Below, piece after piece: positions 35,028 through 53,086 of a DNA stretch of 64,000 nucleotides. The first letter of the stretch is position 1; each line of letters starts with the position of its first letter. Below the pieces are notes generated by a model that searched no databases, was not told the DNA's origin, and worked only from the letters and a program-made list of their open reading frames with translations. The stretch lies in the NCBI RefSeq assembly GCF_006476605.1, contig NZ_ML636800.1:310001-374000 (forward strand), written 5' to 3'. The DNA comes from Brucella gallinifaecis (GTDB lineage Bacteria; Pseudomonadota; Alphaproteobacteria; Rhizobiales; Rhizobiaceae). Position numbers and translations under genes: made by a program.

Positions 35028-35078
35028 TCCCGGTCTAGCTCTCTCCACCACCCTCCTCCCAACAGTCCTCTGGAGACT

Positions 35079-36479: not shown

Positions 36480-36516
36480 TTAGAGCATGATCCGATCAGA
36501 GTGAAACGCGCTCTAA
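36480..36516. repeat. Intergenic inverted repeat, TTAGAGC...GCTCTAA
   Basis: TTAGAGC at 36480-36486 and its complement GCTCTAA at 36510-36516 flank a core that matches, in reverse complement, the pattern cgtttcactctgatcgg seen widely between genes in Rhizobiales. It overlaps the last codon of the GlpD-like gene (stop at 36513). It is related to the element at 29989-30030. Confidence 0.55.
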
Positions 36517-38240
36517 CGCCGCTTTGCAGGATTATCAGTAATTTTCATTCCGTGTCGTTTGGCCAGCTCAGCGATTACAGCATCAAGCTCCTGCATCTTA
36601 CGAGCTGCATCCCAGCCAAGTTCAAGGCCGACAATATCAGCAATTGCCGACAGATTGGCATATGAAAGCGCACCATCAATTGCCAGTGTCGTGCGCCGCA
36701 GAACGACATCAGACAGATGAACCACAAGTTCATTGCTTGCAATCCACGCAATTTCTGCGCGGCTGATGCTGTCCGTATCGGGCAGAAGTGTAACGCCAAG
36801 TTTGGCCTCGATCTGAATGATCGGCAAGGCGGTGGTGCCATAACGCTGCAACAGGATCTCGACACGCTCGGATGCCAGCCCGGTTTCCCTTGCATTTTTA
36901 ACCACCCATGCAGCACGGGAACTGGCATCAAGAGGATAATCCCTGCCCCCGCCAATGCTGAGATTCCGGGTTGTTTTAATACGCTCGCGGCCAAAGCGCT
37001 TGAGCACCACATCTGCCACTTCTTCCGCAAAGCCGCGAAACGTCGTCCATTTGCCACCCACAAGCGAGATGATCGGGAACGGACGCCCTGTTTCCGGCTC
37101 AATAAGCGGTGCGGAGTGATCGCGGCTGATAAGGCCCGGCTCCGAAGCATTGGAGGCAGGCAGTGGGCGAATGCCGCTATAGGTATAGACAATCTGGCTA
37201 TGATCAAATTTCAGCTTCGGCAACAGCGAACGCAGGCTTTCGATGAAATAATCGATTTCCTTATCTTCAGCAAAAACCTCATCAGGATTATTCGCCGGGA
37301 TATCCGTCGAACCAACCAGTGCCAGACCATGATAATCATAGACAAGGCAGATGCGGCCATCATCTGCCTCAAAATAGATCATGCGCCCTTTAAGGCTCTT
37401 AACCAGCTCAGGATGATCAATCAGGATATGCGAGCCTTTGGTGCCGCCAATCAATCTGGTTTCTTTACCCAGCGCCGCGTTGACATGATCGATCCATGGA
37501 CCAGCGGCATTGATGACGATCTTCGGCTTGATCGTGAAAGCCGTTCCATCCTGATCTTCAAAGCTTACTGCACCGTCGCGGGCTGCAACAATGGAAGTAA
37601 AATTGGCCGCTGCGTTCTTCGGATTGGCTTTCAATCCATCGCTGACAAGCTCATAAACCAGACGTTCCGGTTTACTAACCCATGCATCATAATAAATGCC
37701 GCCACCAACAATAGACGGTGTCATATATGGCATTTCCTTCAAGGCTTTTTTCCTGAAGAGAAAATTATGCTTTGGCATAACGCGCTCACGCGCACCAAAA
37801 TAATCATAAAGCCCAAGACCGATCTTGATCAGCACCGCACCACGACTGCGTGGTGCGGTCGTTGAGCCAAACAAGGTCCTCAGTGCTGCGGGAATCCCCT
37901 TAGTCCACGAAAAAACCGGAATGAAAGTCGGCAATGGCTGGACATTATGCGGTGCATTTTTCAGCAAAATATTGCGCTCGACGGTTGATTGCGCAACGAG
38001 GCCAAACTCACCCGTTTCCAGATATTTCAGACCACCATGAATGAGGCGTGAAGGGGCCGCACTCGTGCCCGAGCCAAAATCACCCTTATCGACAATAAAA
38101 CAGCTCACGCCCTGTTCACTCAAATCACGATAAAGACCCGCACCATTGATGCCCGCACCGAGAATGAGCACATCAACACCATCAGCTTCGAGCTGTCTGA
38201 TGCGGTTCTTCATTTGCGCACTGTTTACGAAATCATTCAT
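36513..38240 (-). CDS. GlpD-like FAD-dependent polyol-phosphate dehydrogenase
   Basis: A 575-residue flavoprotein of the glycerol-3-phosphate dehydrogenase family, longer than EryB in this window (502) because of a full C-terminal DAO_C domain. The FAD fold starts at DVLILGAGINGAGLYRDLSEQG near residue 23, followed by SRLIHGGLKYLETGEFGLV, KGSHILIDHPELV and the conserved SGIRPLPAS and GGKWTTFRGFAEE. It should oxidise a polyol phosphate at a secondary alcohol and pass electrons to quinone at the membrane. It is the last gene of the leftward operon, 20 bp after the FGGY kinase, so kinase product and dehydrogenase substrate are presumably the same compound. Glycerol 3-phosphate or a tetritol/pentitol phosphate are candidates. 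Confidence 0.88.
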   Translation of the reverse strand: MNDFVNSAQMKNRIRQLEADGVDVLILGAGINGAGLYRDLSEQGVSCFIVDKGDFGSGTSAAPSRLIHGGLKYLETGEFGLVAQSTVERNILLKNAPHNVQPLPTFIPVFSWTKGIPAALRTLFGSTTAPRSRGAVLIKIGLGLYDYFGARERVMPKHNFLFRKKALKEMPYMTPSIVGGGIYYDAWVSKPERLVYELVSDGLKANPKNAAANFTSIVAARDGAVSFEDQDGTAFTIKPKIVINAAGPWIDHVNAALGKETRLIGGTKGSHILIDHPELVKSLKGRMIYFEADDGRICLVYDYHGLALVGSTDIPANNPDEVFAEDKEIDYFIESLRSLLPKLKFDHSQIVYTYSGIRPLPASNASEPGLISRDHSAPLIEPETGRPFPIISLVGGKWTTFRGFAEEVADVVLKRFGRERIKTTRNLSIGGGRDYPLDASSRAAWVVKNARETGLASERVEILLQRYGTTALPIIQIEAKLGVTLLPDTDSISRAEIAWIASNELVVHLSDVVLRRTTLAIDGALSYANLSAIADIVGLELGWDAARKMQELDAVIAELAKRHGMKITDNPAKRR

Positions 38241-38260
38241 TTCATTGTCTTCGCTATGTT

Positions 38261-39775
38261 TTAATCAGTTAAGGCGTCAATTTTGGGCCAGATCGGCCCC
38301 ATCGCAGACGCTATTTCCTTGAACAGCGAGTAACGCTTTTCATATTGCCCAGCTCGCGCTGCATCCGGCACATAGGTCCGGCCAATCGCATCCAGATCGC
38401 GCGGATCGCTGTAAACATCGGCAAAAACACCAGCCCCCTTGCCTGCACAAAGTGCGGCGCCCCATGCCGCCGCTTCATCGGTGTCAGTGACTGTGACCGG
38501 CATACCAAGCACATTGGCAAACATTTGCGCGAAAGATGGGCTGCGCGAAACGCCTCCCGTCAGACGAGCACTCGAAATTTCAAAACCGTCTTTGAGATGA
38601 TCAACATGGATACGGTGATTAAAGGCAATGCCTTCCCAGACCGCACGCAACATGTCACCCCGTTCCTGCCAACCACGAAGCCCGAAAAATGCCCCGCTTG
38701 CCATCGCACCATAGGGCGAGCCAAACAGATAGGGATGAAACAGAGCCGTTGATGGTCTGGCCAATGCTGCATCGATTTCCCCGCGCAGCATATCATGAAT
38801 AGAACGGCCCGTTTCCTCAGCTTCACGACGTTCTGCCGGGCACAACTTATCAAGAAACCAATCATAATTGGCAGTCGAGGCAGGCGAAATGGACATATTG
38901 TTCCACTCACCCGGCGCAATAGCATTGCGGCAGAACCAGCTCTTATCAACATTAGGTTTTGACGACAGCGTTTCATTGATCGAGTAAGTGCCGGCAACAA
39001 CCGCAACCGTTCCGATTTTAAGACCACCAACACCCAGCGCTGAAGCCGTCACATCATGCAGACCGCCAACAACCGGCGTTCCGGCAACAAGTCCGGTGCG
39101 GCTCGCACATTCCTGTGAAACGCCGCCAATGATTTCGTCCGAGCGTGACATCCGTGGCAATGCATCCCAAAGTGCCTCCAGCCCAAACAGCTCAAGCGCA
39201 TCTTTGGAATAGTCCTGCGTATTATAATCAGTGAATGAGGTCGAAGCCTCGGTACGGTCAGTACCGACCTCCCCCGTCAGACACAGCCGAAGCCAGTCCT
39301 TGCAGGCAATCACATGACCAATTTTGTTATAACGTTCAGGCTCGTTTTCTTTTACCCAGGCCAGAATTGCAGAAGGGGCAGAAGCATGCGGCAGTTGCCC
39401 GGTAATGGTAATCGACTGATCTGCAACTGCACTGCCCAGCCACCGCTCAGCAACATCAACAGCGCGGCTGTCGAGTGAGAGAATGCCCTTGCCAAGCGGC
39501 CGTGCATCGTGATCGAGCATATAAATGCCATCACCATGCGCAGTTGTGGCAATGGCGAGAATATCCGATGCCGGGCGTCCGCTTTTGGCGATTGCTTCAA
39601 CAATTGCATCAGCCGTAGCGCTCCAGAATTCATCCATATCGCGCTCGACATGGCGCGGTTTGGGAAAATATTGGGGTACGCGACGGCGGGCAACGGCAAG
39701 CGTCGAGCCATCAACGTCAAATATCACGGCCTTGGTGACGGTCAGTCCGCTATCAATTCCCAACAAAGACGGCAT
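38261..39775 (-). CDS. FGGY-family carbohydrate (polyol) kinase
   Basis: A 504-residue kinase with the actin-like ATPase fold; the N-terminal phosphate loop is LLGIDSGLTVTKAVIFDVDGS. The first FGGY domain has the catalytic-region segment around THGDGIYMLD and the C-terminal signature appears as GGVSRSPSFAQMFANVLGMPV near residue 407. Among FGGY kinases it is nearer to the xylulose/erythritol group than to glycerol kinase. It lies between a DeoR regulator (51 bp upstream) and the GlpD-like dehydrogenase (20 bp downstream), repeating the EryA-EryB logic of the divergent operon with a different pair of enzymes. Substrate unknown. Confidence 0.88.
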   Translation of the reverse strand: MPSLLGIDSGLTVTKAVIFDVDGSTLAVARRRVPQYFPKPRHVERDMDEFWSATADAIVEAIAKSGRPASDILAIATTAHGDGIYMLDHDARPLGKGILSLDSRAVDVAERWLGSAVADQSITITGQLPHASAPSAILAWVKENEPERYNKIGHVIACKDWLRLCLTGEVGTDRTEASTSFTDYNTQDYSKDALELFGLEALWDALPRMSRSDEIIGGVSQECASRTGLVAGTPVVGGLHDVTASALGVGGLKIGTVAVVAGTYSINETLSSKPNVDKSWFCRNAIAPGEWNNMSISPASTANYDWFLDKLCPAERREAEETGRSIHDMLRGEIDAALARPSTALFHPYLFGSPYGAMASGAFFGLRGWQERGDMLRAVWEGIAFNHRIHVDHLKDGFEISSARLTGGVSRSPSFAQMFANVLGMPVTVTDTDEAAAWGAALCAGKGAGVFADVYSDPRDLDAIGRTYVPDAARAGQYEKRYSLFKEIASAMGPIWPKIDALTD

Positions 39776-39826
39776 GGATTGTATTTCCTGATATATATGC
39801 GCTGAATTCGTGAGCCTTCACGCTTG

Positions 39827-40681
39827 TTATTTTATTCCAGTAGCGCGGGCGACAACCACATTGATGTTTTGCGACTGCATGCGTTCAATATGCTCATAGG
39901 GTGTTTTGTCATCGACGATAACCACATCAAAATCTTTCAAGGCACCGAAATTATGCAGTGCTCTGCGCTCAAATTTGGTGTGATCAATCAAGAGGACACG
40001 CTTTGCAGCACTCTCCAGCATGGCACGCTTGGTTTCGACCATTTCCGGTGACTGGTGAAACAGCAGATCATCAGTAATGGCCGCGATTGAAATGAAAGCC
40101 ACATCAGCACGCAGCCGACGAATTTCATGTATAGTCATGCCGCCGACAAAGGCATTGCACCAGTTATAAAGCTGACCGCCAAGACCAAGCAGGGTGATAT
40201 CTTGCATATCACGCACTTCGTTCATCAAAATCAGGGAATTGGTAATGACAGTCAGCGGTCCTTTGCCGGAAAGGAAAGGAGCCATCTGAAGAACTGTTGT
40301 GGAATCATCGAAGAAAATTGCCTGCCCTGGCTCAACAAACTGCATTGCAGCTTCGGCAATCAGTTTTTTCTCTTCAGATTGGCGCGCAACACGATAGAGG
40401 TCACTTGCTTCAATAAGACTTGTGGGCGCTGCGGAAACAATCCCGCGCGTTTTACGAAACAATCCCCGACTGACCAGCTCATCCACATCACGATGCGCAG
40501 TCATCAGGCTGATCGCAAAGCGCTCTGTCAGATCTTCAATGCGTACCGATCCTTCTGACATAATCATTTCAGCAATTTGCTGACGACGAACCAACTGGCG
40601 TGCATGCCTGCTGTCGTTCGGCACCTGCTCCGTCAGAAGACCATCAATGTTTGCTTTATTTCTTGTAACCATGCCTGTCAC
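39827..40681 (-). CDS. DeoR/GlpR-family transcriptional regulator
   Basis: A 284-residue regulator with an N-terminal winged helix (about residues 28-85; RRQQIAEMIMSEGSVRIEDL then DLTERFAISLMTAHRDVDEL) and a C-terminal sugar-phosphate-sensing domain of the DeoRC family. The conserved DDSTTVLQM, VITNSLILMNEV and GGQLYNWCNAFVG blocks are present. About 25 extra residues precede the HTH. It is encoded in the same operon as the transporter upstream and the kinase/dehydrogenase downstream, so it probably responds to a phosphorylated intermediate made by them. Confidence 0.88.
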   Translation of the reverse strand: MTGMVTRNKANIDGLLTEQVPNDSRHARQLVRRQQIAEMIMSEGSVRIEDLTERFAISLMTAHRDVDELVSRGLFRKTRGIVSAAPTSLIEASDLYRVARQSEEKKLIAEAAMQFVEPGQAIFFDDSTTVLQMAPFLSGKGPLTVITNSLILMNEVRDMQDITLLGLGGQLYNWCNAFVGGMTIHEIRRLRADVAFISIAAITDDLLFHQSPEMVETKRAMLESAAKRVLLIDHTKFERRALHNFGALKDFDVVIVDDKTPYEHIERMQSQNINVVVARATGIK

Positions 40682-40786
40682 TCGTCCCCAGCCCGTTCAT
40701 TTTATTGACCGGTCCCGATTCATAGCATCGGTACGAAAAAATTGAACAGGGCACGGAATTTAATCCGCGCCCCGTTCATACAGATC

Positions 40787-41734
40787 TTACTGCTCAAGAA
40801 CGAACGGCGCTGTATATTTGTCAACATTATCCTTGGTGATCAGGAAGCAATCAAAAAGCTGCTTTTCCTGATCAACACCGGTCTTGCCTGTCTTGATGAA
40901 GTTATCGGCCTGCCTGACAGCAGCTTCCGAGAAGATCGCAACCGGCTGCAAAACAGTGTACTGAAGTTCACCGGCCTTGATTGCTTCAACTGCATCAGGC
41001 GAACCGTCGAAACCGCCAACCTTGACCTGATCCAGCTTGCCAGCCTTCTTCAGAGCCGCGATCGCGCCGAGAGCCATTTCGTCGTTACCGGAGATAACGC
41101 CGATAATGTCAGGATTTGCCTGAAGCAGTGCCTGCATCTTGTCGTGGCCCTGTGTACGGTTCCAGTTTGCAACGTCCTGACCAACTTTTACAAGGTCCGG
41201 ATACTGCGAAAGAACAGTTTCATAGCCATTGGAGCGGGTGGCAGCATTGTTGTCCGACGGCGAACCGAACAGCTCAACATATTTGCCTTCTTCGCCAACG
41301 CTCTCAACCCACTGTGTTGCACCCAGTGCTGCACCCTGTGCATTGTTGGAAACGAGCTGTGCTTTCGCAAGGCCTTCCTGGTTGATTTCAGCATTTACGA
41401 GGAACACTGGAATACCGGCTGCAACAGCACGCTTGACCGCACCAACCGAACCATCAGCATTTGCCGGGTCAAGAATAATCGCAACCGACTTGTTGGTGAT
41501 CGCGGTATCGATCAGGTTGCTTTCAGTATTGGTGTCACCCTTGTGGCCGCCAACAACAGCCGAATAGCCGAGGCCTTCAGCGGTCTTCTTGGCAATTTCA
41601 CCTTCGGTGTACCAATATGGGTTTGAAGGATCGTTGACCACGATTGAGATCAAGCCTTCAGCCCATGCTGTGCTTGCGATAAGCGGCAATGCTGCTGCTG
41701 CAGCAAAAAGAACGCGCATACCCTTCTTAAACAT
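40787..41734 (-). CDS. Ribose-type ABC importer periplasmic binding protein (erythritol-importer position)
   Basis: A 315-residue periplasmic binding protein of the RbsB/type 1 family. The signal peptide spans about residues 1-25 (LFAAAAALPLIASTAWA). Mature blocks include ISIVVNDPSNPYWYTEGEIAKKTAEGLGY, ILDPANADGSVGAVKRAVAAGIPV, GNDEMALGAIAAL and VGGFDGSPDAVEAIKAGEL. A strong GGGAG site precedes the ATG. It is separated from the permease gene by a hairpin (41852-41880). By position, adjoining eryA, this is the erythritol importer of Brucella (eryEFG set), but I do not assign letter names. Confidence 0.88.
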   Translation of the reverse strand: MFKKGMRVLFAAAAALPLIASTAWAEGLISIVVNDPSNPYWYTEGEIAKKTAEGLGYSAVVGGHKGDTNTESNLIDTAITNKSVAIILDPANADGSVGAVKRAVAAGIPVFLVNAEINQEGLAKAQLVSNNAQGAALGATQWVESVGEEGKYVELFGSPSDNNAATRSNGYETVLSQYPDLVKVGQDVANWNRTQGHDKMQALLQANPDIIGVISGNDEMALGAIAALKKAGKLDQVKVGGFDGSPDAVEAIKAGELQYTVLQPVAIFSEAAVRQADNFIKTGKTGVDQEKQLFDCFLITKDNVDKYTAPFVLEQ

Positions 41735-41851
41735 ATCTCACTCCCGTAAAATTATCTTTGCGTTTACCGGTTACCCGGCGTTTCCATTCCAGGGGGCGAG
41801 ACTTTTAAAGCTGATCGCCATCTTGGAACGTTTTCTCTATTCCCGAAAATC

Positions 41852-41880
41852 CGGCTCCGCCCGGAACGGGAGCGGAGCCG
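41852..41880 (-). terminator. Hairpin between permease and binding-protein genes
   Basis: CGGCTCCGC and GCGGAGCCG, 9 bp, exactly complementary around an 11-nt loop, with extra GC pairs possible inside. It lies downstream of the permease stop and upstream of the binding-protein gene on the minus strand and probably tunes their relative expression. Confidence 0.7.
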
Positions 41881-41886
41881 TAGAGA

Positions 41887-42924
41887 TTAACGTTTGGAAT
41901 ATTGAATGCTGTTGAGCAGAACGGCGAGCACGATAACAGCACCCGTAAATACAGTCTGCCAATAGGATGATACACCGATGATCACGAGGCCATCGGAAAG
42001 GAAACCGATAACGAAAGCGCCAAGAAGCGTACCCAGAATTGTGCCGCGACCACCCGTCAGCGCCGCACCACCGATAACGACTGCGGCAATTGCTGTCAGT
42101 TCATAGGTTGTGCCTGCGGTTGGACCGGCTGAAGTCAGCTGCGATGCGAGAACCAGGCCAGCAATGGCAGCGCAAATACCTGAAATCACATAGACTGAGA
42201 TCTGTACACGCTTGACCGGAACGCCTGAAAGTTCTGCAGCACGTTCATTACCACCCGAGGCATAGAGCCAGCGGCCAAATGCGGTGCGGTTAAGCACGAC
42301 TGCAACGATAATGGCGAGAACTGCCAGTATAAGAACGCCAATCGGCACCCCAAACAAAGTGTTGAAGCCCAGCCAGTCAAAACCTGTATTGCCCAGTTCA
42401 GGACGACCACCAAGGTTGTTATAGGTCAGGCCGTTGGTCATCAAAAGCGCCACACCACGCGCACAATAAAGAACGCCGAGCGTTGCCACGAAAGCCGGAA
42501 CGCGCAGATAAGCAATCAGAACGCCATTGATAGCACCGACAAATGCGCCAAGCGCACAGGTGATAAGCACGACTGCCCAGACCGGGAAATAAAGAATGAC
42601 ACCGAGTTCTGGAATATTGACGCCTTGCATCAAAAATCCAGCAACAACCCCTGCAAGCCCCAGCGTAGAGCCGACCGAAAGATCGATACCACCATTCAGA
42701 ATAACCAGCAGCATGCCAATTGCCAGCAAGCCGAAAATGGCAACATGCGACGACATGATCAGGAAGTTATTGACGGTAAAATAATAGGGCGAAAGAAATG
42801 AGAAAGCTGCGATAATAGCGATCAGGGCAAAAAATGCGCGACCTTCGAGCAATAAATGCACGATGCTGATTTTCCGCTTTGCTCCGTTCGGAGCCGCTTT
42901 GTCTTTTGTAGTCGTGACTGACAT
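41887..42924 (-). CDS. Ribose-type ABC importer permease (RbsC family)
   Basis: A 345-residue inner membrane permease with about eight to ten spans and the RbsC signatures GGIDLSVGSTLGLAG near residue 80 and ELTAIAAVVIGGAALTGGRGTILGT near 275. It is the partner of the two-domain ATPase upstream (24-bp gap) and the binding protein downstream. In the erythritol-locus context it is most likely the erythritol or related polyol channel. Confidence 0.9.
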   Translation of the reverse strand: MSVTTTKDKAAPNGAKRKISIVHLLLEGRAFFALIAIIAAFSFLSPYYFTVNNFLIMSSHVAIFGLLAIGMLLVILNGGIDLSVGSTLGLAGVVAGFLMQGVNIPELGVILYFPVWAVVLITCALGAFVGAINGVLIAYLRVPAFVATLGVLYCARGVALLMTNGLTYNNLGGRPELGNTGFDWLGFNTLFGVPIGVLILAVLAIIVAVVLNRTAFGRWLYASGGNERAAELSGVPVKRVQISVYVISGICAAIAGLVLASQLTSAGPTAGTTYELTAIAAVVIGGAALTGGRGTILGTLLGAFVIGFLSDGLVIIGVSSYWQTVFTGAVIVLAVLLNSIQYSKR

Positions 42925-42947
42925 TCTATCAGTGCTCCATAACTATA

Positions 42948-44489
42948 TTAATGGCCGACCATGGATTCGCCCGAGGCAGCCATGATCTTTTCCTTGGAGA
43001 CATCAGAGCCGAATTCGGCTGAGATACGTCCACGGTGCATAACAATGATACGATGAGCGATGCTGAGGCACTCGCCTACTTCTGATGTGGTATAAACGAC
43101 AGCCAGACCTTCTTTGGCCTTTTCGGCCAGAAGCTTGAACACTTCAGCTTTCGCGCCAATATCAATACCGCGGCTTGGCTCATCAAGCAGAATAACTTTT
43201 GGCTCTGTCGCCAGCATCTTGCCAATCACGACCTTCTGCTGATTGCCACCGGAAAGCGAGCCGATTGCTGCTTCACCACCATCGGTCTTGATATGAACAT
43301 TCCTGATCGATTGATCGACAATGTTCTTTTCACGTCTGGTCGAAGTAAAAAGACCTCTCGTCATTGCACCAATGCTTGCAAGCGAAAGATTGCGGCCAAC
43401 CGTCATTGTCTGCACAAGACCATCGCGCTGGCGGTCTTCCGGCACCAGAACAAGACCCTGATCAATACGCTGAGCAATTGTGAGATCTTCAACGTCCTTG
43501 CCTTCAAGGAGAATACGACCTGAACTGGCTTTAAGCCGGCCTGCAACTGTTTCCAGAAGCTCAGTCCGTCCTGCGCCCATCAGACCATAGATACAAACGA
43601 TTTCACCGGCACGCACATTAAGCGATAAATTATCAACAAGTGCGAAATCACCAGATTTATCCTGAACCGTCAGTCCTTCAACAGACAGTGCGACATCGCC
43701 CCATTCATAACCGGTTGGAGGAGAACCAAGATCAAAGTTCTCGCCAACCATGTTACGAACGATCCATTCCAGATCAATCTGCGCGCGTGGTGCATAAGCA
43801 GTCATGGTTCCATCGCGCAGCACAACGGCATGATCCGTGATTTGCAGTGCTTCTTCGAGGTGATGGGAAATATAGACGATCGCCACACCACGCGCAGTCA
43901 GATCACGAATAACCTTGAACAACACTTCCACTTCTGACGCGCTTAGCGCGGAAGTCGGCTCATCCATGATCAGAATGCGGGAATTAACTGAAAGCGCACG
44001 CGCGATTTCGACAACCTGCTGCTGGCCGAGACGAAGCTCTTCAACGGGGGTCAGTGGATCAATATCTTCTTCAAGTTCCGCCAGAAGCTCACGGGTCAGA
44101 CGTTCTTCTTCTGCGAAATTCACACCCGATGCACCACGGATTTCGCGACCCATGAAAATGTTGTCACGCACATTCATATTGGGTGCGAGGCTCAGTTCCT
44201 GATGGATAATCGAAATTCCGCGGTCGCGTGCCTCGGTTGAAGAATTAAACACAACCGGTTCGCCATCAAGAACAATCGTGCCGGAAGTTGGCTGAATAAC
44301 ACCCGACAGAACCTTCATCAGTGTCGACTTGCCAGCACCATTTTCGCCAAAAAGCGTTGTGACCTGACCGCGGCGAATTTCAAAATTCACACCCTTGAGC
44401 GCATGAATGCGCCCATAAGCCTTGGCTACATCATGTGCAGAAAGAACGACTTCGCCGTGCTTGCCTTCAACTTTGTTCTGAGCGGTCAT
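42948..44489 (-). CDS. Ribose-type ABC importer ATPase with two nucleotide-binding domains (RbsA family)
   Basis: A 513-residue protein with two ABC domains. The first has Walker A FGENGAGKSTLMK near residue 51 and LRLGQQQVVEIARAL with LIMDEPTSAL; the second has a degenerate Walker A (YGLMGAGRTELLE near 290) and LSGGNQQKVVIGKML with LLDEPSRGIDIG. This asymmetry is normal for RbsA. It overlaps the DUF2291 gene by 4 bp and drives the importer with the permease and binding protein downstream. Confidence 0.92.
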   Translation of the reverse strand: MTAQNKVEGKHGEVVLSAHDVAKAYGRIHALKGVNFEIRRGQVTTLFGENGAGKSTLMKVLSGVIQPTSGTIVLDGEPVVFNSSTEARDRGISIIHQELSLAPNMNVRDNIFMGREIRGASGVNFAEEERLTRELLAELEEDIDPLTPVEELRLGQQQVVEIARALSVNSRILIMDEPTSALSASEVEVLFKVIRDLTARGVAIVYISHHLEEALQITDHAVVLRDGTMTAYAPRAQIDLEWIVRNMVGENFDLGSPPTGYEWGDVALSVEGLTVQDKSGDFALVDNLSLNVRAGEIVCIYGLMGAGRTELLETVAGRLKASSGRILLEGKDVEDLTIAQRIDQGLVLVPEDRQRDGLVQTMTVGRNLSLASIGAMTRGLFTSTRREKNIVDQSIRNVHIKTDGGEAAIGSLSGGNQQKVVIGKMLATEPKVILLDEPSRGIDIGAKAEVFKLLAEKAKEGLAVVYTTSEVGECLSIAHRIIVMHRGRISAEFGSDVSKEKIMAASGESMVGH

Positions 44490-45145
44490 TTTACTTCCAG
44501 CACCACTGGCGTAACCAGCCAGTTTTTCGGGTTGACCAGCTTGAAAACGCCCGTAACTGAAACTGTCTTGCCGATAAGATTATCGACATCAACACCTTCG
44601 AGAACCTGCTTTTTCATTTCATTATTAAGAGCGGATCCGGCATTCTGGAACTCGATCTGGTTCTTGAACTGGCCAAATTCGATAGTGCCGGTTGCATCCC
44701 GCAAATCGGTGCCATTGACAGCAGGCCCCGTCTGGACACGGATTACCATTCCTTCAGGAAAACCATCGACTTTAACGACATTATAATTTGATTTACGCTC
44801 CTCAACGGTTCCGGTAAATTTGATCGGAATGACCGGGTTTACGTTGCCAACGCCATATTTCTTACCGGCTGCATCCTTGTCAGCAACAATAGCAGTTGCA
44901 ACTTCAACTGCGTCAACAGCACGCTCTTCAATACTTGTTTTGACCTTGGGAAATTCAGCGGCGCCATAGGCCTCAGGCGAGAAAACCTGCTGACGCACAT
45001 CGGCATCGGAACCGATTTTCACAACTTTCGTATCAAAACCAATTGCGCCGATCACCACAACCGCAGCAATCACACTCCAGAGGGTAGCGCGGCTTGTTTT
45101 GGCTGGCCTTGTTGCAACCTGATTAGCTTGTGTACTCATTATCAA
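44486..45145 (-). CDS. DUF2291 membrane-anchored protein of the sugar importer operon
   Basis: A 219-residue protein with one N-terminal span (about residues 21-38, TLWSVIAAVVVIGAIGF) and a beta-rich extracytoplasmic domain of the DUF2291 family. The family is known almost only from operons of ribose-type importers, where it precedes the ATPase gene, as here. Blocks such as NVNPVIPIKFTGTVEERKSNYNVVKVDGFP and QTGPAVNGTDLRDATGTIEF are typical. Its function is unknown; a periplasmic accessory of the importer is a reasonable guess. It overlaps the ATPase gene by 4 bp and follows a possible 31-residue leader frame. Confidence 0.85.
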   Translation of the reverse strand: MIMSTQANQVATRPAKTSRATLWSVIAAVVVIGAIGFDTKVVKIGSDADVRQQVFSPEAYGAAEFPKVKTSIEERAVDAVEVATAIVADKDAAGKKYGVGNVNPVIPIKFTGTVEERKSNYNVVKVDGFPEGMVIRVQTGPAVNGTDLRDATGTIEFGQFKNQIEFQNAGSALNNEMKKQVLEGVDVDNLIGKTVSVTGVFKLVNPKNWLVTPVVLEVK

Positions 45146-45830: not shown

Positions 45831-45896
45831 ATGTTCATCACGGGTTACATGAATTGCCTGAGCTGCATTAAGAAAGCATCATTCTGTCATGCATGA
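45831..45896 (+). CDS. Putative 21-residue leader peptide overlapping the eryA start
   Basis: A strong ribosome-binding site (GGGAGGAG at 45818-45825) precedes ATG at 45831, opening a 21-codon frame beginning MFITGYMNCLSCIKK with three cysteines. Its TGA (45894-45896) lies just inside eryA, whose ATG is at 45889 in another frame, an overlap of 8 nt. eryA itself has only a weak site, so its translation may depend on ribosomes finishing the leader. The arrangement is seen directly; the regulatory role is inference. Possible alternatives are that the strong site serves nothing, or that eryA starts elsewhere. Confidence 0.5.
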   Translation: MFITGYMNCLSCIKKASFCHA

Positions 45897-47442
45897 TAAA
45901 GGTGATATTATCATCGGCATCGACGCGGGAACCTCCGTCGTCAAGGCTGTGGCTTTTGATCTGAGTGGCCGCCAGCTCGACTCGGCCGCCGTCCGCAACA
46001 AATATGAAACCGGCGAGCACGGTGCGGTAACTCAGTCACTTTCCCAGACATGGGATGACTGCGCCAGCGCTTTGCGCAATCTTGCCGAGAAAATTCCAGG
46101 TTTAAGCAAGCGCACTGCCGCAATTTCTGTCACAGGTCAGGGCGACGGCACATGGCTGGTTGGAAAAGACAATAAACCGGTCGGCGATGCCTGGATCTGG
46201 CTTGATGCTCGCGCAGCCAATACAGTTACAAAGCTTGCAGCAGGCCCAATGAACCGTGCACGCTTTGAAGCAACCGGCACCGGCCTTAATACCTGCCAGC
46301 AAGGCACGCAAATGGCGCATATGGACAGTTTCATGCCGGAACTGCTCGATAATGCGGAAGTCGCCCTTCATTGCAAGGACTGGCTTTACCTTAACCTCAC
46401 CGGCGTCCGCGCTACAGACCCATCAGAAGCAAGTTTTACATTCGGTAATTTCCGTAATCGTCAATATGACGATGTCGTTATTGAAGCGCTTGGCCTGCAA
46501 AAGCGCCGCAGCCTGCTGCCCGAAATTGTGGATGGCACTCTGACACAACATCCACTATCCCCCGATGCAGCAGCGCTCACAGGACTTAAGGCCGGAACAC
46601 CGGTGAGTCTTGGTTATGTCGATATGGTGATGACCGCACTTGGTGCAGGTGTTTATTGCGGCACGGCTGATGCAGGCTGCTCAACCATCGGATCGACCGG
46701 TGTGCATATGCGGGCAAAATCTGTTTCCGACATTCATCTGAATGCAGAAGGTACAGGCTATGTTATTGCGTTGCCGGTTCCCGGCATCGTCACGCAGGTT
46801 CAGACCAATATGGGCGCGACAATCAATATTGACTGGATTTTGCAAATTGCTGCCGACCTGATGTCCAGCCCGGATAAACAAGTCTCCCTGAGCGATCTTA
46901 TCCCGCGCCTTGATGAATGGTTTAACATGAGCCGCGCTGGTGCATTGCTTTACCATCCTTATATTTCGGAAGCAGGCGAACGCGGACCTTTTGTCAATGC
47001 CTTTGCCCGTGCCGGATTTATCGGTCTTTCAAGCCGCGACCGCTTTCCTGAACTGGTTCGTTCAGTGGTTGAAGGTCTCGGTATGGCAACGCGCGACTGT
47101 TATGCCGCCATGGGTGGAATGCCAGCTGAACTGCGACTGACAGGCGGTGCGGCACGCTCACGCGCACTACGCAGCACGCTTTCAGCAGCACTCAATGCAC
47201 CCGTGCGCGTTTCATCGCGTGAAGAAGCGGGGGCTGCCGGTGCCGCAATGATGGCAGCGGTTGCCATTGGCGCTTACTCAAACATGGAAGACTGTATCAC
47301 GCAATGGGTTGCACCTTTGCTGGGTGCTGGCGAAGCACCCGATGCGCAACAGGCTCAACGCTATGCTGAACTGTTCGTCGCTTATAAAGAGGCCCGACTG
47401 GCATTAACTCCGGTCTGGGACAAGCTTGCAGCCGGTCAATAA
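45889..47442 (+). CDS. eryA: Erythritol kinase EryA
   Basis: ATP-dependent kinase making L-erythritol 4-phosphate, first step of Brucella erythritol catabolism. The 517-residue FGGY-family sequence has the N-terminal phosphate loop IIIGIDAGTSVVKAVAFDLSG, the region SVTGQGDGTWLV, a CKDWLYLNLTG block and the C-terminal RLTGGAARSRALRSTLSAAL signature. Length and neighbours (eryB, eryC, eryD in order) fit Brucella eryA. The ATG at 45889 lies inside the leader frame described above and has a weak ribosome-binding site. It is the first enzyme gene of the eryABCD operon, which EryD represses. Confidence 0.93.
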   Translation: MHDKGDIIIGIDAGTSVVKAVAFDLSGRQLDSAAVRNKYETGEHGAVTQSLSQTWDDCASALRNLAEKIPGLSKRTAAISVTGQGDGTWLVGKDNKPVGDAWIWLDARAANTVTKLAAGPMNRARFEATGTGLNTCQQGTQMAHMDSFMPELLDNAEVALHCKDWLYLNLTGVRATDPSEASFTFGNFRNRQYDDVVIEALGLQKRRSLLPEIVDGTLTQHPLSPDAAALTGLKAGTPVSLGYVDMVMTALGAGVYCGTADAGCSTIGSTGVHMRAKSVSDIHLNAEGTGYVIALPVPGIVTQVQTNMGATINIDWILQIAADLMSSPDKQVSLSDLIPRLDEWFNMSRAGALLYHPYISEAGERGPFVNAFARAGFIGLSSRDRFPELVRSVVEGLGMATRDCYAAMGGMPAELRLTGGAARSRALRSTLSAALNAPVRVSSREEAGAAGAAMMAAVAIGAYSNMEDCITQWVAPLLGAGEAPDAQQAQRYAELFVAYKEARLALTPVWDKLAAGQ

Positions 47443-47505: not shown

Positions 47506-49014
47506 ATGGCCGAACCGGAAACCTATGATCTGTTTGTGATTGGTGGCGGTATCAATGGTGCGGGTGTTGCCCGCGATGCAGCAGGGCGCGGCCTTAAAGT
47601 TGTGCTGGCAGAAAAAGACGATCTCGCGGAAGGCACATCCTCACGCTCCGGCAAGCTTGTGCATGGCGGTCTTCGCTATCTCGAATATTATGAGTTCCGT
47701 CTGGTGCGCGAAGCTTTGATAGAGCGCGAAGTTCTGTTGAATGCAGCGCCGCACATCATCTGGCCAATGCGCTTTGTTCTACCGCACAGCCCGCAGGATC
47801 GCCCGGCATGGCTCGTGCGTCTTGGCCTGTTTCTCTATGATCATCTCGGTGGCCGCAAGAAACTGCCCGGCACCCGTACGCTTGATTTAAAACGCGACCC
47901 GGAAGGCACCCCAATCCTTGATCAATATACCAAGGGTTTTGAATATTCCGATTGCTGGGTCGATGATGCACGTCTCGTTGTTCTCAATGCTCTGGGTGCC
48001 GCTGAAAAGGGTGCAACAGTTCTGACCCGCACGCCGGTTATTTCTGCACGGCGTGAAAATAGCGGCTGGATCGTTGAAACCAAAAACCGCGATACGGGAG
48101 AAGTGCGCAGCTTCCGTGTGCGCTGCATCGTCAATTGTGCTGGCCCATGGGTGACAAATGTTATCACCAATGTTGCCGGCTCCAATTCTTCGCGCAATGT
48201 GCGCCTCGTCAAGGGCAGCCACATTATCGTGCCTAAATTCTGGTCCGGTGCGAATGCCTATCTGGTTCAGAACCATGACAAGCGCGTGATCTTCATCAAC
48301 CCCTATGAAGGGGACAAGGCACTCATCGGAACCACTGATATTGCCTATGAAGGTCGTGCGGAAGATGTCAGTGCGGATGAGAAAGAAATCGATTATCTGC
48401 TCAGCGCAGTAAACCGCTATTTCAAGGAAAAGCTGCGCCGCGAAGATGTGCTGCACAGCTTCTCCGGCGTGCGCCCCTTGTTTGATGATGGCAAAGGCAA
48501 TCCATCTGCTGTCACCCGTGACTATGTTTTTGATCTTGATGAAACCAATGATGCGCCGCTGCTCAATGTCTTTGGTGGCAAGATCACCACATTCCGCGAG
48601 CTGGCCGAGCGTGGCATGCATCGCCTCAAACATATTTTCCCGAAAATGGGTGGTGACTGGACACATGATGCACCGCTTCCGGGCGGCGAAATACCGAACG
48701 CGGATTTTGAGACTTTCGTCAACAGCCTGCGTGACAGCTATCCCTGGATGCCACGCAAGCTCGTCCATCATTATGGACGTCTTTACGGTGCACGCACAAA
48801 AGACGTGGTCACAGGCGCATTAGATCTGAGCGCTCTCGGCCAGCATTTCGGTGGTAATCTCTATGAAGCAGAAGTTCGTTATCTCGTTGCAAAAGAATGG
48901 GCAAAGACGGCAAATGATATTCTCTATCGCCGTACCAAGCACTATCTGCACCTGAGCGAAGCCGAACGTGCTGCATTCGTTGCATGGTTTGATAACGCTA
49001 AACTTGCTGCCTGA
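47506..49014 (+). CDS. eryB: L-erythritol 4-phosphate dehydrogenase EryB
   Basis: FAD-dependent dehydrogenase of the GlpD family converting L-erythritol 4-phosphate to L-3-tetrulose 4-phosphate. The FAD fold is DLFVIGGGINGAGVARDAAGRG at about residues 9-30, with SRSGKLVHGGLRYLEYYEFRLV, VKGSHIIVPKFW, and GVRPLFDDGKGNPSAV as other family blocks. The ATG at 47506 (502 residues) has AAGGAG upstream; the frame extends to a TTG at 47473 that is not needed. It lies 63 bp after eryA and 7 bp before eryC. Confidence 0.93.
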   Translation: MAEPETYDLFVIGGGINGAGVARDAAGRGLKVVLAEKDDLAEGTSSRSGKLVHGGLRYLEYYEFRLVREALIEREVLLNAAPHIIWPMRFVLPHSPQDRPAWLVRLGLFLYDHLGGRKKLPGTRTLDLKRDPEGTPILDQYTKGFEYSDCWVDDARLVVLNALGAAEKGATVLTRTPVISARRENSGWIVETKNRDTGEVRSFRVRCIVNCAGPWVTNVITNVAGSNSSRNVRLVKGSHIIVPKFWSGANAYLVQNHDKRVIFINPYEGDKALIGTTDIAYEGRAEDVSADEKEIDYLLSAVNRYFKEKLRREDVLHSFSGVRPLFDDGKGNPSAVTRDYVFDLDETNDAPLLNVFGGKITTFRELAERGMHRLKHIFPKMGGDWTHDAPLPGGEIPNADFETFVNSLRDSYPWMPRKLVHHYGRLYGARTKDVVTGALDLSALGQHFGGNLYEAEVRYLVAKEWAKTANDILYRRTKHYLHLSEAERAAFVAWFDNAKLAA

Positions 49015-49021
49015 GGACAAG

Positions 49022-49954
49022 ATGGCTCTTACGCTTTCACTCAATACCAATCCACTTGTAAACCGTTTTGCCGAGCCGGGCGATCTGATCGAAACAGTTG
49101 CACGTGACCTGCGTTTGCGCGATTTGCAGCTTACACATGAATTCATAAACCCAAGCTGGCAGGCTTCAACCATTCGCCGCCTCACCCGTGATATGGGCAA
49201 GGCATTGGAGCGCACCGGTGTCCGCATCACATCCGGCATGACCGGGCCTTATGGCCGCCTCAACCACTTCGGTCATCCAGATGCGCAAGTGCGCCGTTAT
49301 TATATCGACTGGTTCAAGACTTTCGCCGACATTATCGGTGATCTTGGCGGCAAGTCAGTCGGTACGCAATTTGCGATTTTCACCTATAAGGATTTTGATA
49401 ATCCCGAACGCCGCGAAGAGCTGATCAAAATCGCGATCGATTGCTGGGCGGAAGTTGCCGAACATGCGGCTGGTGCCGGCCTTGAATATATATTCTGGGA
49501 GCCGATGAGCATTGGACGTGAATTTGGTGAAACAATTGCTGAAAGCATCAAGCTTCAGGATCGGCTGACTGCAACCGATATGGCAATTCCGATGTGGATG
49601 ATGGCCGATATAGATCATGGTGATGTCACATCATCAAACCCGGATGATTTTGATCCATATGCATGGGCACGCGCAGTACCCAAAGTTTCGCCGATCATTC
49701 ATATCAAGCAGAGCCTGATGGATAAGGGCGGCCATCGCCCTTTCACAGCAGAATTCAATACCAAGGGCCGCATTCAGCCAGAACCACTGCTTAAAGCCTT
49801 GAGCGAAGGCGGTGCTGTGAACAATGAAATCTGCCTTGAACTGTCGTTCAAGGAACGTGAGCCAAATGACCGTGAAGTTATTCCGCAAATTGCCGAAAGT
49901 GTAGCCTTCTGGGCACCGCACATTGACACGGGCGTAGGTGATTTGAAAATATAA
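49022..49954 (+). CDS. eryC: Tetrulose 4-phosphate racemase EryC
   Basis: A 310-residue TIM-barrel protein of the xylose isomerase-like superfamily. In Brucella the orthologue racemises L-3-tetrulose 4-phosphate to D-3-tetrulose 4-phosphate; older annotations wrongly call it a dehydrogenase. Metal-binding-type residues are seen in YIFWEPMSIGREFG, MWMMADIDHGDVTSSNPDDFDPY and IIHIKQSLMDKGGHRPFTAEFN. The ATG at 49022 follows the eryB stop by 7 bp with TGAGGA upstream and replaces an in-frame upstream start inside eryB. Confidence 0.92.
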   Translation: MALTLSLNTNPLVNRFAEPGDLIETVARDLRLRDLQLTHEFINPSWQASTIRRLTRDMGKALERTGVRITSGMTGPYGRLNHFGHPDAQVRRYYIDWFKTFADIIGDLGGKSVGTQFAIFTYKDFDNPERREELIKIAIDCWAEVAEHAAGAGLEYIFWEPMSIGREFGETIAESIKLQDRLTATDMAIPMWMMADIDHGDVTSSNPDDFDPYAWARAVPKVSPIIHIKQSLMDKGGHRPFTAEFNTKGRIQPEPLLKALSEGGAVNNEICLELSFKEREPNDREVIPQIAESVAFWAPHIDTGVGDLKI

Positions 49955-51048: not shown

Positions 51049-51810
51049 GTGAAACGCGACGAAAGAAGACAAGCGATCATCAATCTGCTGATTGAAAATC
51101 ATGCCGTCGATCTTGATGATCTTTCGGAACGTTTTGCAGTTTCCAAAATGACCATTCATCGTGATCTGGATTCGCTTGAGGAATCCGGCGTCCTGCGCAA
51201 AGTCCGCGGCGGCGCAACGATGGATGCCGGCTCCCAGTTTGAAAGTGATTTCCGTTTTCGTGTACAGCAGGACAATGAAGCCAAAATTGAAATGGGCCGC
51301 GCTGCTCTTGATCTGATTGAACCAGGTATGACAGTCATGATCAATGATGGCTCCACCGCTGCGGTTCTGGGGAGCATGCTGATCGAAAAACGCCCCCTGA
51401 CAGTGATCACGAATAATGCGGTCATTATCGAAAATCTCAAAGGCGAAGGCGGCATCAATCTGATCGCTCTTGGCGGCGTATTTTCTGCAAAATTCAACGC
51501 ATTCTTTGGCCTGCTGACGGAGGAAGCTCTTTCAAAGCTCAGCGCAGACATCGCTTTTATTTCCGCGCCTGCAATCAATGGACGCCTCGTCTATCATATG
51601 GATGAAAACGTTGTGCGTACCAAGCGTGCCATGACCGCATCGGCAACCCGTACATGCCTTTTGGTCAACCATCAGCGTTTTCGCCGCACAGCCCTGCATG
51701 TCATGGCTGACCTTGGCGATTTTGATGCAATCATTACGGATAAATCGCCGGGCGATACTTTGCTGGCCGAGCTTGAGCCGGCAGGCATTAAACTGACAAT
51801 CGCAGAATAA
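51049..51810 (+). CDS. eryR: DeoR-family regulator of the eryR-eryH-eryI unit
   Basis: A 253-residue DeoR regulator with winged helix (about residues 1-57; ERRQAIINLLIENHAVDLDDLSERFAVSKMTIHRDLDSLEE) and DeoRC sensor domain with NDGSTAAVLGSM, VITNNAVIIENL and GGVFSAKFNAFFG. It starts with GTG, preceded by GGA at a usual distance. It is followed after 26 bp by eryH and 11 bp later by eryI, the same order as eryR-tpiB-rpiB in rhizobia. It likely controls that unit and perhaps itself through the repeat at 50960-51004. Confidence 0.85.
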   Translation: MKRDERRQAIINLLIENHAVDLDDLSERFAVSKMTIHRDLDSLEESGVLRKVRGGATMDAGSQFESDFRFRVQQDNEAKIEMGRAALDLIEPGMTVMINDGSTAAVLGSMLIEKRPLTVITNNAVIIENLKGEGGINLIALGGVFSAKFNAFFGLLTEEALSKLSADIAFISAPAINGRLVYHMDENVVRTKRAMTASATRTCLLVNHQRFRRTALHVMADLGDFDAIITDKSPGDTLLAELEPAGIKLTIAE

Positions 51811-51836: not shown

Positions 51837-52619
51837 ATGACACAATTCGGAGCCAGGTTCTGGGTCGGAACAAGCTGGAAAATGAACAAAACACTGGCGG
51901 AAGCCCGCGCTTTTGCGAGCGCATTGAAGGACGCCGATCATAACCGTTCAGAAGACATTCAGCGCTTTGTAATCCCACCATTTACCTCAGTTCGTGAAGT
52001 GAAGGACATCCTGTCGGATACATCCGTCAAAGTGGGTGCGCAAAACATGCACTGGGCTGATCAGGGGGCATGGACCGGCGAAATTTCTCCGCTGATGCTT
52101 AAAGATTGCAATCTCGACATTGTTGAACTCGGACACTCCGAACGCCGCGCTCATTTTGGCGAAACCAACGAAACCGTTGGCCTCAAGGTTGAAGCAGCCG
52201 TTCGTCATGGTTTGATTCCGCTCATCTGCATTGGTGAAACGCTGGAAGACCGCGAAAGCGGACGCGCCGCGCAAGTATTGGCAGAAGAAGTGCGTGGCGC
52301 ACTCTCAAAGCTTTCGGATGAACAGAAAAAGGCCGAAATCCTGTTCGCCTATGAACCAGTATGGGCAATTGGTGAAAATGGCATTCCGGCCTCGGCTGAT
52401 TATGCCGACGCACGTCAGGCCGAAATCATCGCTGTTGCGACAAGCATTCTTGGCCGCCGCATAGCTTGTCTCTATGGCGGTTCAGTCAATCCCGGCAATT
52501 GCGAAGAACTCATCGCCTGCCCGAATATTGATGGTCTGTTCATTGGTCGTTCGGCATGGAACGTAGAGGGTTATCTCGACATTTTGAACAAATGCGCCAA
52601 GAAAATCAAAGCTAATTAA
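51837..52619 (+). CDS. eryH: D-3-tetrulose 4-phosphate isomerase EryH (TpiA2)
   Basis: A 260-residue triosephosphate isomerase-like TIM barrel. In Brucella the orthologue (TpiA2, renamed EryH) converts D-3-tetrulose 4-phosphate to D-erythrulose 4-phosphate. The TPI catalytic residues are all present: lysine in GTSWKMNKT near 15, histidine in [13 protein letters not shown] near 101 and glutamate in [13 protein letters not shown] near 174, followed by [11 protein letters not shown] and the phosphate-binding [10 protein letters not shown] housekeeping TPI is expected elsewhere in the genome. It lies between eryR and eryI. Confidence 0.92.
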
Positions 52620-52630
52620 GGAGTAATATC

Positions 52631-53086
52631 ATGAAAGTAGCAGTAGCAGGCGACAGTGCCGGTGAAGGTCTTGCCAAGATTCTTGCAGATCATCTGAAGG
52701 ATCGTTTTGAAGTGTCCGAAATTTCCCGCACGGACGCAGGTGCTGATGCATTTTACGCAAATCTCTCGGACCGCGTTGCATCTGCCGTTCTCGATGGCAC
52801 CTATGACCGTGCAATTCTGGTTTGCGGCACCGGCATCGGTGTTTGCATTGCAGCCAATAAGGTTCCGGGTATCCGCGCCGCACTCACCCACGACACCTAT
52901 TCGGCTGAACGTGCAGCGCTTTCCAACAATGCGCAAATCATCACCATGGGCGCACGCGTTATCGGCTCGGAAGTTGCAAAGACCATTGCTGATGCATTCC
53001 TTGCACAGACCTTTGACGAAAAGGGGCGCTCGGCTGGCAATGTTGACGCAATTAACGAAGTCGACGCCAAGTATAATAAATGCTGA
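52631..53086 (+). CDS. eryI: D-erythrulose/D-erythrose 4-phosphate isomerase EryI (RpiB family)
   Basis: A 151-residue RpiB-type isomerase. In Brucella the orthologue interconverts D-erythrulose 4-phosphate and D-erythrose 4-phosphate, ending the erythritol route in the pentose phosphate pathway. The catalytic cysteine is in [17 protein letters not shown] near residue 65, with the [26 protein letters not shown] block behind it. It is unusual for RpiB in acting mainly on four-carbon substrates. A strong terminator follows at 53110. Confidence 0.92.

What the first reader, a model, noticed from the sequence alone, without database searches (positions are those of the whole stretch)
36513..45145. 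Second kinase/polyol-phosphate dehydrogenase pair embedded in the erythritol-importer operon
The leftward operon divergent from eryA reads DUF2291, RbsA-type ATPase, RbsC-type permease, binding protein, DeoR regulator, FGGY kinase, GlpD-like dehydrogenase. The last pair repeats the EryA/EryB chemistry with distinct enzymes (504 and 575 residues against 517 and 502). It has its own regulator. Inference: it phosphorylates and oxidises a second polyol whose ketose phosphate could enter EryC, EryH or EryI, for instance a threitol isomer or a pentitol. Related tetritol routes are known in other bacteria, but I know of no description of this one.
Basis: partly seen in the sequence, partly recalled or inferred. 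Interest (0 to 1): 0.72.

Follow-up and report, generated by a model that had tools for sequence, protein, structure and literature searches.

The report
Second tetritol branch in erythritol locus
Next to its erythritol-eating genes this bacterium carries a second kinase and dehydrogenase that most likely let it also eat another four-carbon sugar alcohol, L-threitol, through the same importer and the same last enzymes.

Summary
In detail: DUF2291–eryE–eryF–eryG–deoR–FGGY kinase (K2)–GlpD-like dehydrogenase (DH2), divergent from eryA. A strong hairpin separates eryG from deoR, so one operon is not shown. K2 and DH2 are not copies of EryA/EryB (28%, 32% identity) and miss the GlpK, XylB and GlpD cut-offs; canonical GlpK, GlpD and XylB lie elsewhere in the genome. 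DH2 is in 22 of 24 genomes of the genus; the K2 clade in 17 of 397 sampled genomes of the order; the pair also lies in the Rhizobium 3841 erythritol locus. Sixteen of those 17 have EryC, all 17 EryH. In 6 of 17 the pair forms a tight directon with eryH/eryI without eryC, but in 3 others eryC lies upstream on the same strand. One 99%-complete genome has K2, DH2 and EryH but no EryC. A sister family carries an aldolase; this clade does not. With recalled GlpD stereochemistry this points to L-threitol: K2 phosphorylates it, DH2 makes L-erythrulose 1-phosphate (D-3-tetrulose 4-phosphate), EryH and EryI finish to D-erythrose 4-phosphate. No activity was tested. A search of held papers for threitol kinase found none. 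New variant of a known kind.

The parts
36513..38240 (-). DH2: 575-aa GlpD/GlpO-like FAD dehydrogenase (DAO + DAO_C); proposed L-threitol-phosphate dehydrogenase giving L-erythrulose 1-phosphate
38261..39775 (-). K2: 504-aa FGGY kinase; proposed L-threitol kinase
39827..40681 (-). DeoR-family regulator beside the pair (37% identical to EryR)
40743..40778 (-). hairpin with T tail between eryG and deoR: terminator or mRNA-stability stem
40787..41734 (-). EryG-type (RbsB-like) binding protein
41887..42924 (-). EryF-type (RbsC-like) permease
42948..44489 (-). EryE-type (RbsA-like) double ATPase
44486..45145 (-). DUF2291 predicted periplasmic lipoprotein, first gene of the importer group
45889..47442 (+). 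EryA, erythritol kinase (divergent operon)
47506..49014 (+). EryB, erythritol-phosphate dehydrogenase
49022..49954 (+). EryC, tetrulose-phosphate racemase (not needed by the proposed L-threitol route)
   Evidence: function recalled from Barbier 2014
51049..51810 (+). EryR, DeoR regulator
51837..52619 (+). EryH (TIM family), proposed entry point of the K2/DH2 product
52631..53086 (+). EryI (RpiB family), D-erythrulose-4-phosphate isomerase

Best explanation
K2 and DH2 form a second tetritol branch that shares the EryEFG importer and the last two isomerases of the erythritol pathway. K2 phosphorylates L-threitol; DH2, keeping the stereochemistry of GlpD-type enzymes, oxidises the carbon next to the phosphate and gives L-erythrulose 1-phosphate (= D-3-tetrulose 4-phosphate). 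EryH turns this into D-erythrulose 4-phosphate and EryI makes D-erythrose 4-phosphate. EryC is bypassed, because L-threitol already carries the configuration that EryC must create for erythritol. Shown by computation: gene content, conservation, co-occurrence, clade separation, active-site differences. Inferred: substrate, product, shared transport, regulation.
For: Association: of 397 genomes of the order, 17 hold the K2 clade, 26 hold EryC at E<=1e-100, 16 hold both (Fisher p 7e-21; related genomes are not independent, and only 3 to 5 candidates per genome were scored). All 17 hold an EryH of 52% identity or more. EryC-free case: G270 (99% complete) has K2, DH2 and a divergent 65% EryH, and no EryC at E<=1e-20. 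Directons with gaps up to 350 bp: K2-DH2 run with eryH and/or eryI in G287, G209, G103, G138, G107 and G066, and with eryC in none of 27 mapped loci (exceptions with larger gaps are under evidence against). Contrast: 15 sister loci (picked for their aldolase) pair a similar kinase and dehydrogenase with a DeoC/LacD aldolase and form one clade; that aldolase is in 0 of the 27 K2/DH2 loci, which fits a C4 product that needs only isomerases. Hub: G270's second EryH lies with OiaX (780 bits, cut-off 700), and G232's eryH-eryI lie near OiaX (787 bits) and an OiaK-like kinase below its cut-off; OiaX is recalled to make L-erythrulose 1-phosphate, the same compound. Enzymes: DH2 keeps H68, R358 and K397 but has K72 and W398 in 33 of 33 relatives aligned, where EryB has R and I in 29 of 29; K2 has HGDG in 33 of 33, EryA QGDG in 28 of 28, E. 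coli xylulokinase QMHG. Importer: an EryEFG-type importer lies in the same locus, within about 20 kb, in 14 of 17 clade genomes, the window included; of 10 EryC genomes without the clade, 7 show an Ugp-like importer and 3 are cut by contig ends. Against pentitols: an R. leguminosarum cosmid with the erythritol locus did not restore adonitol or L-arabitol growth in S. meliloti (PMC3599248).
Against: No biochemical or growth test of either enzyme was found. Three clade genomes have eryC upstream of the pair on the same strand: G171 (eryA-B-C, 0.8 kb gap, eryD-K2-DH2), G108 (eryB-C-H-I, 1.9 kb, K2-DH2) and G232 (whole locus one way). The eryH/eryI linkage comes from about four independent arrangements. 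G270 is one genome, and its best RpiB-like protein fails the DerI model (145 bits, cut-off 240), though its own OiaX route would need the same step. L-threitol is not known to me to be common in nature. The stereochemical step rests on recalled GlpD behaviour, and K72/W398 show that the active site has changed. 10 of 26 EryC genomes lack the clade.
Confidence: 0.45

Rival explanations
1. A second erythritol route: K2 phosphorylates erythritol at the other end (D-erythritol 4-phosphate) and DH2 oxidises it to L-erythrulose 1-phosphate, bypassing EryC, as in the old Propionibacterium scheme.
For: Same product and same EryC independence as the main reading. A role of L-erythrulose 1-phosphate in Propionibacterium is in print (title of a 1968 paper in the reference list of PMC4437456). 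The neighbouring importer is an erythritol importer.
Against: Redundant beside EryABC in 16 of 17 clade genomes; needs the dehydrogenase to act on the opposite configuration from GlpD and EryB (recalled stereochemistry).
Confidence: 0.16
2. D-threitol branch: K2/DH2 give D-erythrulose 1-phosphate, which EryC then converts.
For: 16 of 17 clade genomes have EryC; in G171, G108 and G232 eryC lies upstream of the pair on the same strand.
Against: G270 lacks EryC; requires inverted stereochemistry at the oxidised carbon; six tight directons join the pair to eryH/eryI without eryC.
Confidence: 0.11
3. Pentitol or longer-polyol pathway (ribitol, xylitol, arabitol) ending in a ketose 1-phosphate and an aldolase.
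For: The sister family has this layout; a class II Fba adjoins the pair in some rhizobia (L028, L131, L230, L236) and lies about 13 kb away in the window.
Against: No DeoC/LacD aldolase in 27 mapped K2/DH2 loci, and Fba in only 2 of those 27 stretches; the R. leguminosarum locus did not support adonitol or L-arabitol growth (PMC3599248; whether that cosmid held the pair is not stated); EryH in 17 of 17.
Confidence: 0.15
4. Spare glycerol pathway (GlpK/GlpD).
For: DH2's Rhizobium counterpart is annotated glycerol-3-phosphate dehydrogenase/oxidase.
Against: Separate canonical GlpK (775 bits, cut-off 498) and GlpD (781, cut-off 360) exist in the genome; K2 and DH2 fail those models and branch apart.
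Confidence: 0.05

Closest known systems
EryABC-EryHI erythritol pathway (Brucella, Rhizobium leguminosarum)
   Same: FGGY kinase then GlpD-like dehydrogenase acting on a polyol and its phosphate; same locus, importer and last isomerases
   Different: K2 28% and DH2 32% identical to EryA and EryB; K72/W398 in place of R/I; no EryC step proposed
Rhizobium johnstonii (leguminosarum) 3841 pRL12 erythritol locus
   Same: Same gene order, including deoR-K2-DH2; K2 71% identical
   Different: There an Fba follows DH2 on the other strand; K2 and DH2 carry only generic names
Mycolicibacterium smegmatis L-threitol, D-threitol and erythritol routes (Huang 2015)
   Same: Same polyols, same end product D-erythrose 4-phosphate (one-passage summary in PMC12780249; isomerase names recalled)
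   Different: There the polyol is oxidised first and the tetrulose phosphorylated; here phosphorylation would come first
D-apionate route through OiaX
   Same: Genes lie near EryH-type isomerases or near the ery locus in several relatives
   Different: Upstream enzymes unrelated
Aldolase-linked sister family (kinase + GlpD-like + DeoC/LacD aldolase)
   Same: Closest paralogous pair, about 40% identity
   Different: Has an aldolase, another importer and a SorC-type regulator

Membership tests
FGGY carbohydrate kinase superfamily | FGGY_N and FGGY_C over the Pfam cut-offs, catalytic Asp | tested here: met
   199.8 and 92.6 bits; D241 in 33 of 33 relatives aligned; that this Asp is catalytic is recalled
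GlpK glycerol kinase | NCBIfam cut-offs 590 and 498 bits | tested here: not met
   128 and 112 bits
XylB xylulokinase | TIGR01312 cut-off 380 bits; His in the QMHG motif | tested here: not met
   231 bits; Asp in that column
EryA erythritol kinase | falls inside the EryA clade | tested here: not met
   separate clades; 28% identity
GlpD / EryB dehydrogenase | NCBIfam GlpD cut-offs 360 and 352 bits; clade membership | tested here: not met
   262 and 234 bits, separate clade; EryB itself scores 887
GlpD/GlpO fold superfamily | DAO and DAO_C domains, conserved HGG, GxRP, GGK motifs | tested here: met
R. leguminosarum-type erythritol locus | EryEFG with DUF2291 divergent from EryABCD, then EryR-H-I | tested here: met
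   types defined in PMC3599248
L-threitol kinase / L-threitol-phosphate dehydrogenase | activity on L-threitol and its phosphate | not testable with these tools
   needs enzyme assays
L-erythrulose 1-phosphate entry | EryH present, EryC dispensable | tested here: inconclusive
   EryH in 17 of 17; one genome (G270) without EryC

The most novel reading that the evidence does not exclude
The model alphaproteobacterial erythritol locus is really a two-substrate tetritol locus: one importer, two phosphorylate-then-oxidise arms of mirrored stereochemistry (erythritol through EryA-EryB-EryC; L-threitol through K2-DH2), meeting at L-erythrulose 1-phosphate, where the apionate route also enters; host-adapted brucellae lost the L-threitol arm but kept its regulator.
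Probability: 0.35. Interest if true: 0.62.

Novelty: new variant of a known kind. Interest (0 to 1): 0.5.

Why it matters
Erythritol use is tied to nodulation competitiveness and to animal infection (PMC3599248), and its locus has been studied for decades, yet two conserved genes of it have no assigned role that I could find. A phosphorylation-first L-threitol route would add a substrate to the locus, explain why eryH and eryI travel with this pair rather than with eryC in several genomes, and give two enzymes of defined stereochemistry for tetritol chemistry.

Tried and rejected
Glycerol pathway: rejected on clade, cut-offs and separate GlpK/GlpD. Recent duplication of eryAB: rejected. Xylulokinase: rejected on cut-off and motif. 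G073 was first counted in the K2/DH2 clade (17 of 18 with EryC); the tree puts its DH2 outside, so it was dropped and the test repeated (16 of 17). My first gene maps chose the longest frames and took antisense frames for genes; redone with similarity first. The sister group was picked by its aldolase, so its having one is no finding; its forming one clade is. Left out of that group were 10 other dehydrogenase rows (5 with K72, 5 with R72); one of their loci, L174, also has the aldolase nearby. Of the five stretches folded, the one from L136 was misplaced inside a gene and says nothing, and L132 gave only z -1.8. Rfam found nothing in 32000-56000. The terminator scan as a whole found no more sites than shuffles (11 against 11.1); only the one hairpin stands out. 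Paper search was too loose: none of its 25 listed papers holds threitol. No structure prediction was run: the fold is plain from sequence. Whether classical brucellae hold K2/DH2 could not be tested on sequence; only passages of papers were seen.
Full report
What is there. Divergent from them run eryA, eryB, eryC, eryD, eryR, eryH and eryI. The window lies in an unnamed 3.74 Mb genome whose nearest listed K2 relatives are Brucella (Ochrobactrum group) species, B. pituitosa first at 94% (very near records may be left out of that list). The genus is on control lists for its classical members, so I only describe its genes.

The pair is not glycerol or xylulose machinery. K2 scores 231 bits with XylB (cut-off 380) and 128 with GlpK (cut-off 590); DH2 scores 262 with GlpD (cut-off 360). 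The genome has four FGGY kinases besides EryA and K2, among them a canonical GlpK and a canonical XylB, and a canonical GlpD lies elsewhere. K2 is 28% identical to EryA, DH2 32% to EryB over 402 residues. In trees of 90 dehydrogenases and 86 kinases, K2 and DH2 sit in clades apart from EryA/EryB (quick method, SH-aLRT support, several long branches). So this is not a duplicated eryAB but a second lineage.

It is conserved. DH2 at 76% identity or more is in 22 of 24 genomes of the genus, the own one included; the two without it, G014 and G016, also show no EryA at E<=1e-60. In an even sample of 397 genomes of the order, 18 had K2 at 45% identity or more (three candidates scored per genome); 17 of these form a clade with the window, which is counted in. 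One more member came from another order of the class, G1072 at 61%. The same layout is in Rhizobium johnstonii 3841 pRL12, where, from the numbers pRL120196 = aldolase (PMC5118466, passage) and pRL120200 = EryG (PMC5758756, passage), DH2, K2 and deoR should be pRL120197 to pRL120199 (inferred from order). In PLSDB plasmids 250 records matched K2, 107 of them at 60-80% identity.

It belongs to the erythritol pathway. EryC occurs in 26 of the 397 genomes at E<=1e-100, and 16 of the 17 clade genomes are among them (Fisher p 7e-21; relatives are not independent, so read this as strong association, not as a probability). EryA homologues are in all 17, G270's at 53% in an Ugp-like polyol locus. All 17 have EryH at 52% or more, and 16 have EryI at 61% or more; G270's best is 45% and fails the DerI model, 145 against 240 bits. 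An EryEFG-type importer lies in the same locus, within about 20 kb of the pair, in 14 of 17; it is not seen in the stretches of G103, G138 and G270. Of the ten EryC genomes without the clade, seven show an Ugp-like importer and three loci are cut by contig ends. I take the Ugp-like type to be the MptABCDE type of PMC3599248 (inference).

Where does the product enter? Three observations point to EryH. First, G270 has K2-deoR-DH2 with another importer and a divergent EryH, but no EryC at E<=1e-20 in a 99%-complete genome. Second, of the 27 loci mapped (window not among them), seven put K2-DH2 in one directon with eryH or eryI at gaps up to 350 bp (six in the clade, plus G073), and none with eryC. 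Against this, three clade genomes have eryC upstream on the same strand: G171 (0.8 kb between eryC and eryD, then K2-DH2, with no eryH or eryI in that run), G108 (eryC-H-I, 1.9 kb, K2-DH2) and G232 (everything one way). The eryH/eryI cases come from about four independent arrangements, so this is a lean, not a proof. Third, a sister group of the same enzyme pair, 15 loci picked because they carry a DeoC/LacD aldolase, forms its own clade; that aldolase is in 0 of the 27 K2/DH2 loci. A ketose 1-phosphate longer than C4 would be expected to need an aldolase; a C4 one needs only isomerases.

Stereochemistry then picks the substrate (recalled chemistry, my deduction). GlpD and EryB oxidise the carbon next to the phosphate when it has the L-glycerol 3-phosphate configuration. 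EryB thus makes L-3-tetrulose 4-phosphate from erythritol, and EryC must turn it into D-3-tetrulose 4-phosphate, the EryH substrate, which is L-erythrulose 1-phosphate by another name. A GlpD-type enzyme that makes D-3-tetrulose 4-phosphate directly must start from L-threitol phosphate. D-threitol would give the EryC substrate, and only with inverted specificity. Erythritol phosphorylated at its other end would also give the EryH substrate, again with inverted specificity; this is the main rival.

A side line fits. G270's second EryH (52%) sits with OiaX (780 bits, cut-off 700) and an OiaK-like kinase (401, cut-off 700). G232's eryH-eryI lie near OiaX (787), an OiaK-like kinase (464) and a relative of the apionate lactonase. 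A D-apionate lactonase that passes its model (1047, cut-off 750) follows the pair in B. pituitosa. OiaX is recalled to release L-erythrulose 1-phosphate. So EryH-type isomerases look like a hub fed by several upstream modules.

Active sites. DH2 keeps the histidine, arginine and lysine of the HGG, GxRP and GGK motifs, but has lysine at 72 and tryptophan at 398 in 33 of 33 relatives aligned, where EryB has arginine and isoleucine in 29 of 29; the sister family has R72 and W398 in 15 of 15. E. coli GlpD has R and L there. That these positions touch the substrate is recalled from GlpO structures. K2 has HGDG where EryA has QGDG and E. coli xylulokinase QMHG.

Regulation. The deoR product is 37% identical to EryR. 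In the 17 relatives examined that have eryG followed by deoR, a stem follows the eryG stop closely (judged by eye from the folds); only some have a T run, so it may be a stability stem, a terminator or both. In B. abortus the erythritol-induced cluster ends with a deoR gene, BAB2_0378 (2.3-fold in RNA-seq; PMC3522698, passages). In B. ovis the passages of a flavoproteome paper show only GlpD and EryB with the DAO_C domain (PMC9045290). This suggests that host-adapted brucellae lost DH2 but kept its regulator; I did not test it on sequence.

Literature. [quoted passage not shown] leguminosarum; its text names no second kinase (the word occurs once, for EryA) and neither glpD, glycerol nor DeoR (figures are not held). 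PMC10190533 (passages) moved the five catabolic ery genes of an Ochrobactrum into E. coli; this pair is not among the ten genes it lists. PMC11103875 (passages) reports rhizosphere defects for eryB, eryR, tpiA2 and rpiB2 of 3841. A search for 'threitol kinase' and threitol-phosphate names found one unrelated metabolomics paper (listing). Searches on threitol catabolism (25 of 142 listed), on the Rhizobium erythritol locus (20 of 50 listed), on erythrulose phosphates (15 of 15) and on polyol kinases and dehydrogenases (3 of 3) listed no description of this route. One search was too loose to count. Yost 2006, Barbier 2014, Huang 2015 and Carter 2018 are not held.

Verdict. The pair is a conserved, unassigned second arm of the alphaproteobacterial erythritol locus, most likely for L-threitol. 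The chemistry is inferred throughout.

Noticed in passing
window 40743-40778 (-): Strong hairpin with a T6 tail just after the eryG stop; stems of varying sequence stand at the same place in the 17 relatives examined with eryG-deoR.
   Followed up: partly
L148-L150, L176-L181, L183, L185, L187, L188, L190, L225: Sister family: K2-like kinase and DH2-like dehydrogenase with a DeoC/LacD aldolase, mostly also an aldo/keto reductase, a GMC oxidoreductase, an RbsABC/Lsr-like importer and a SorC-type regulator; substrate unknown, probably a longer polyol.
   Followed up: partly
L021 13900-21089; L184 5318-17096; L207 9325-19638; L236 16112-23508: Apionate-type genes (apionate lactonase or its relatives, OiaX, OiaK-like kinase, or DhaK/DhaL) beside the ery locus or with an EryH-type isomerase of their own.
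   Followed up: partly
G014, G016 (same genus): Two genomes of the genus show neither DH2 nor EryA, so the whole locus seems absent there.
   Followed up: no
window 32144-36380 (+): A MalK/UgpABCE-like ABC importer runs convergent to DH2. In L138 an Ugp-like importer (26-43% identity) stands directly upstream of K2, so some K2/DH2 pairs may use that type.
   Followed up: no
L234 3440-11422 (Rubrobacter indicoceani plasmid): A K2-like kinase (46%) and a GlpD-like gene with a SorC-type regulator, an iron alcohol dehydrogenase, a second FGGY kinase and, further on, an aquaporin: a possible actinobacterial cousin.
   Followed up: no
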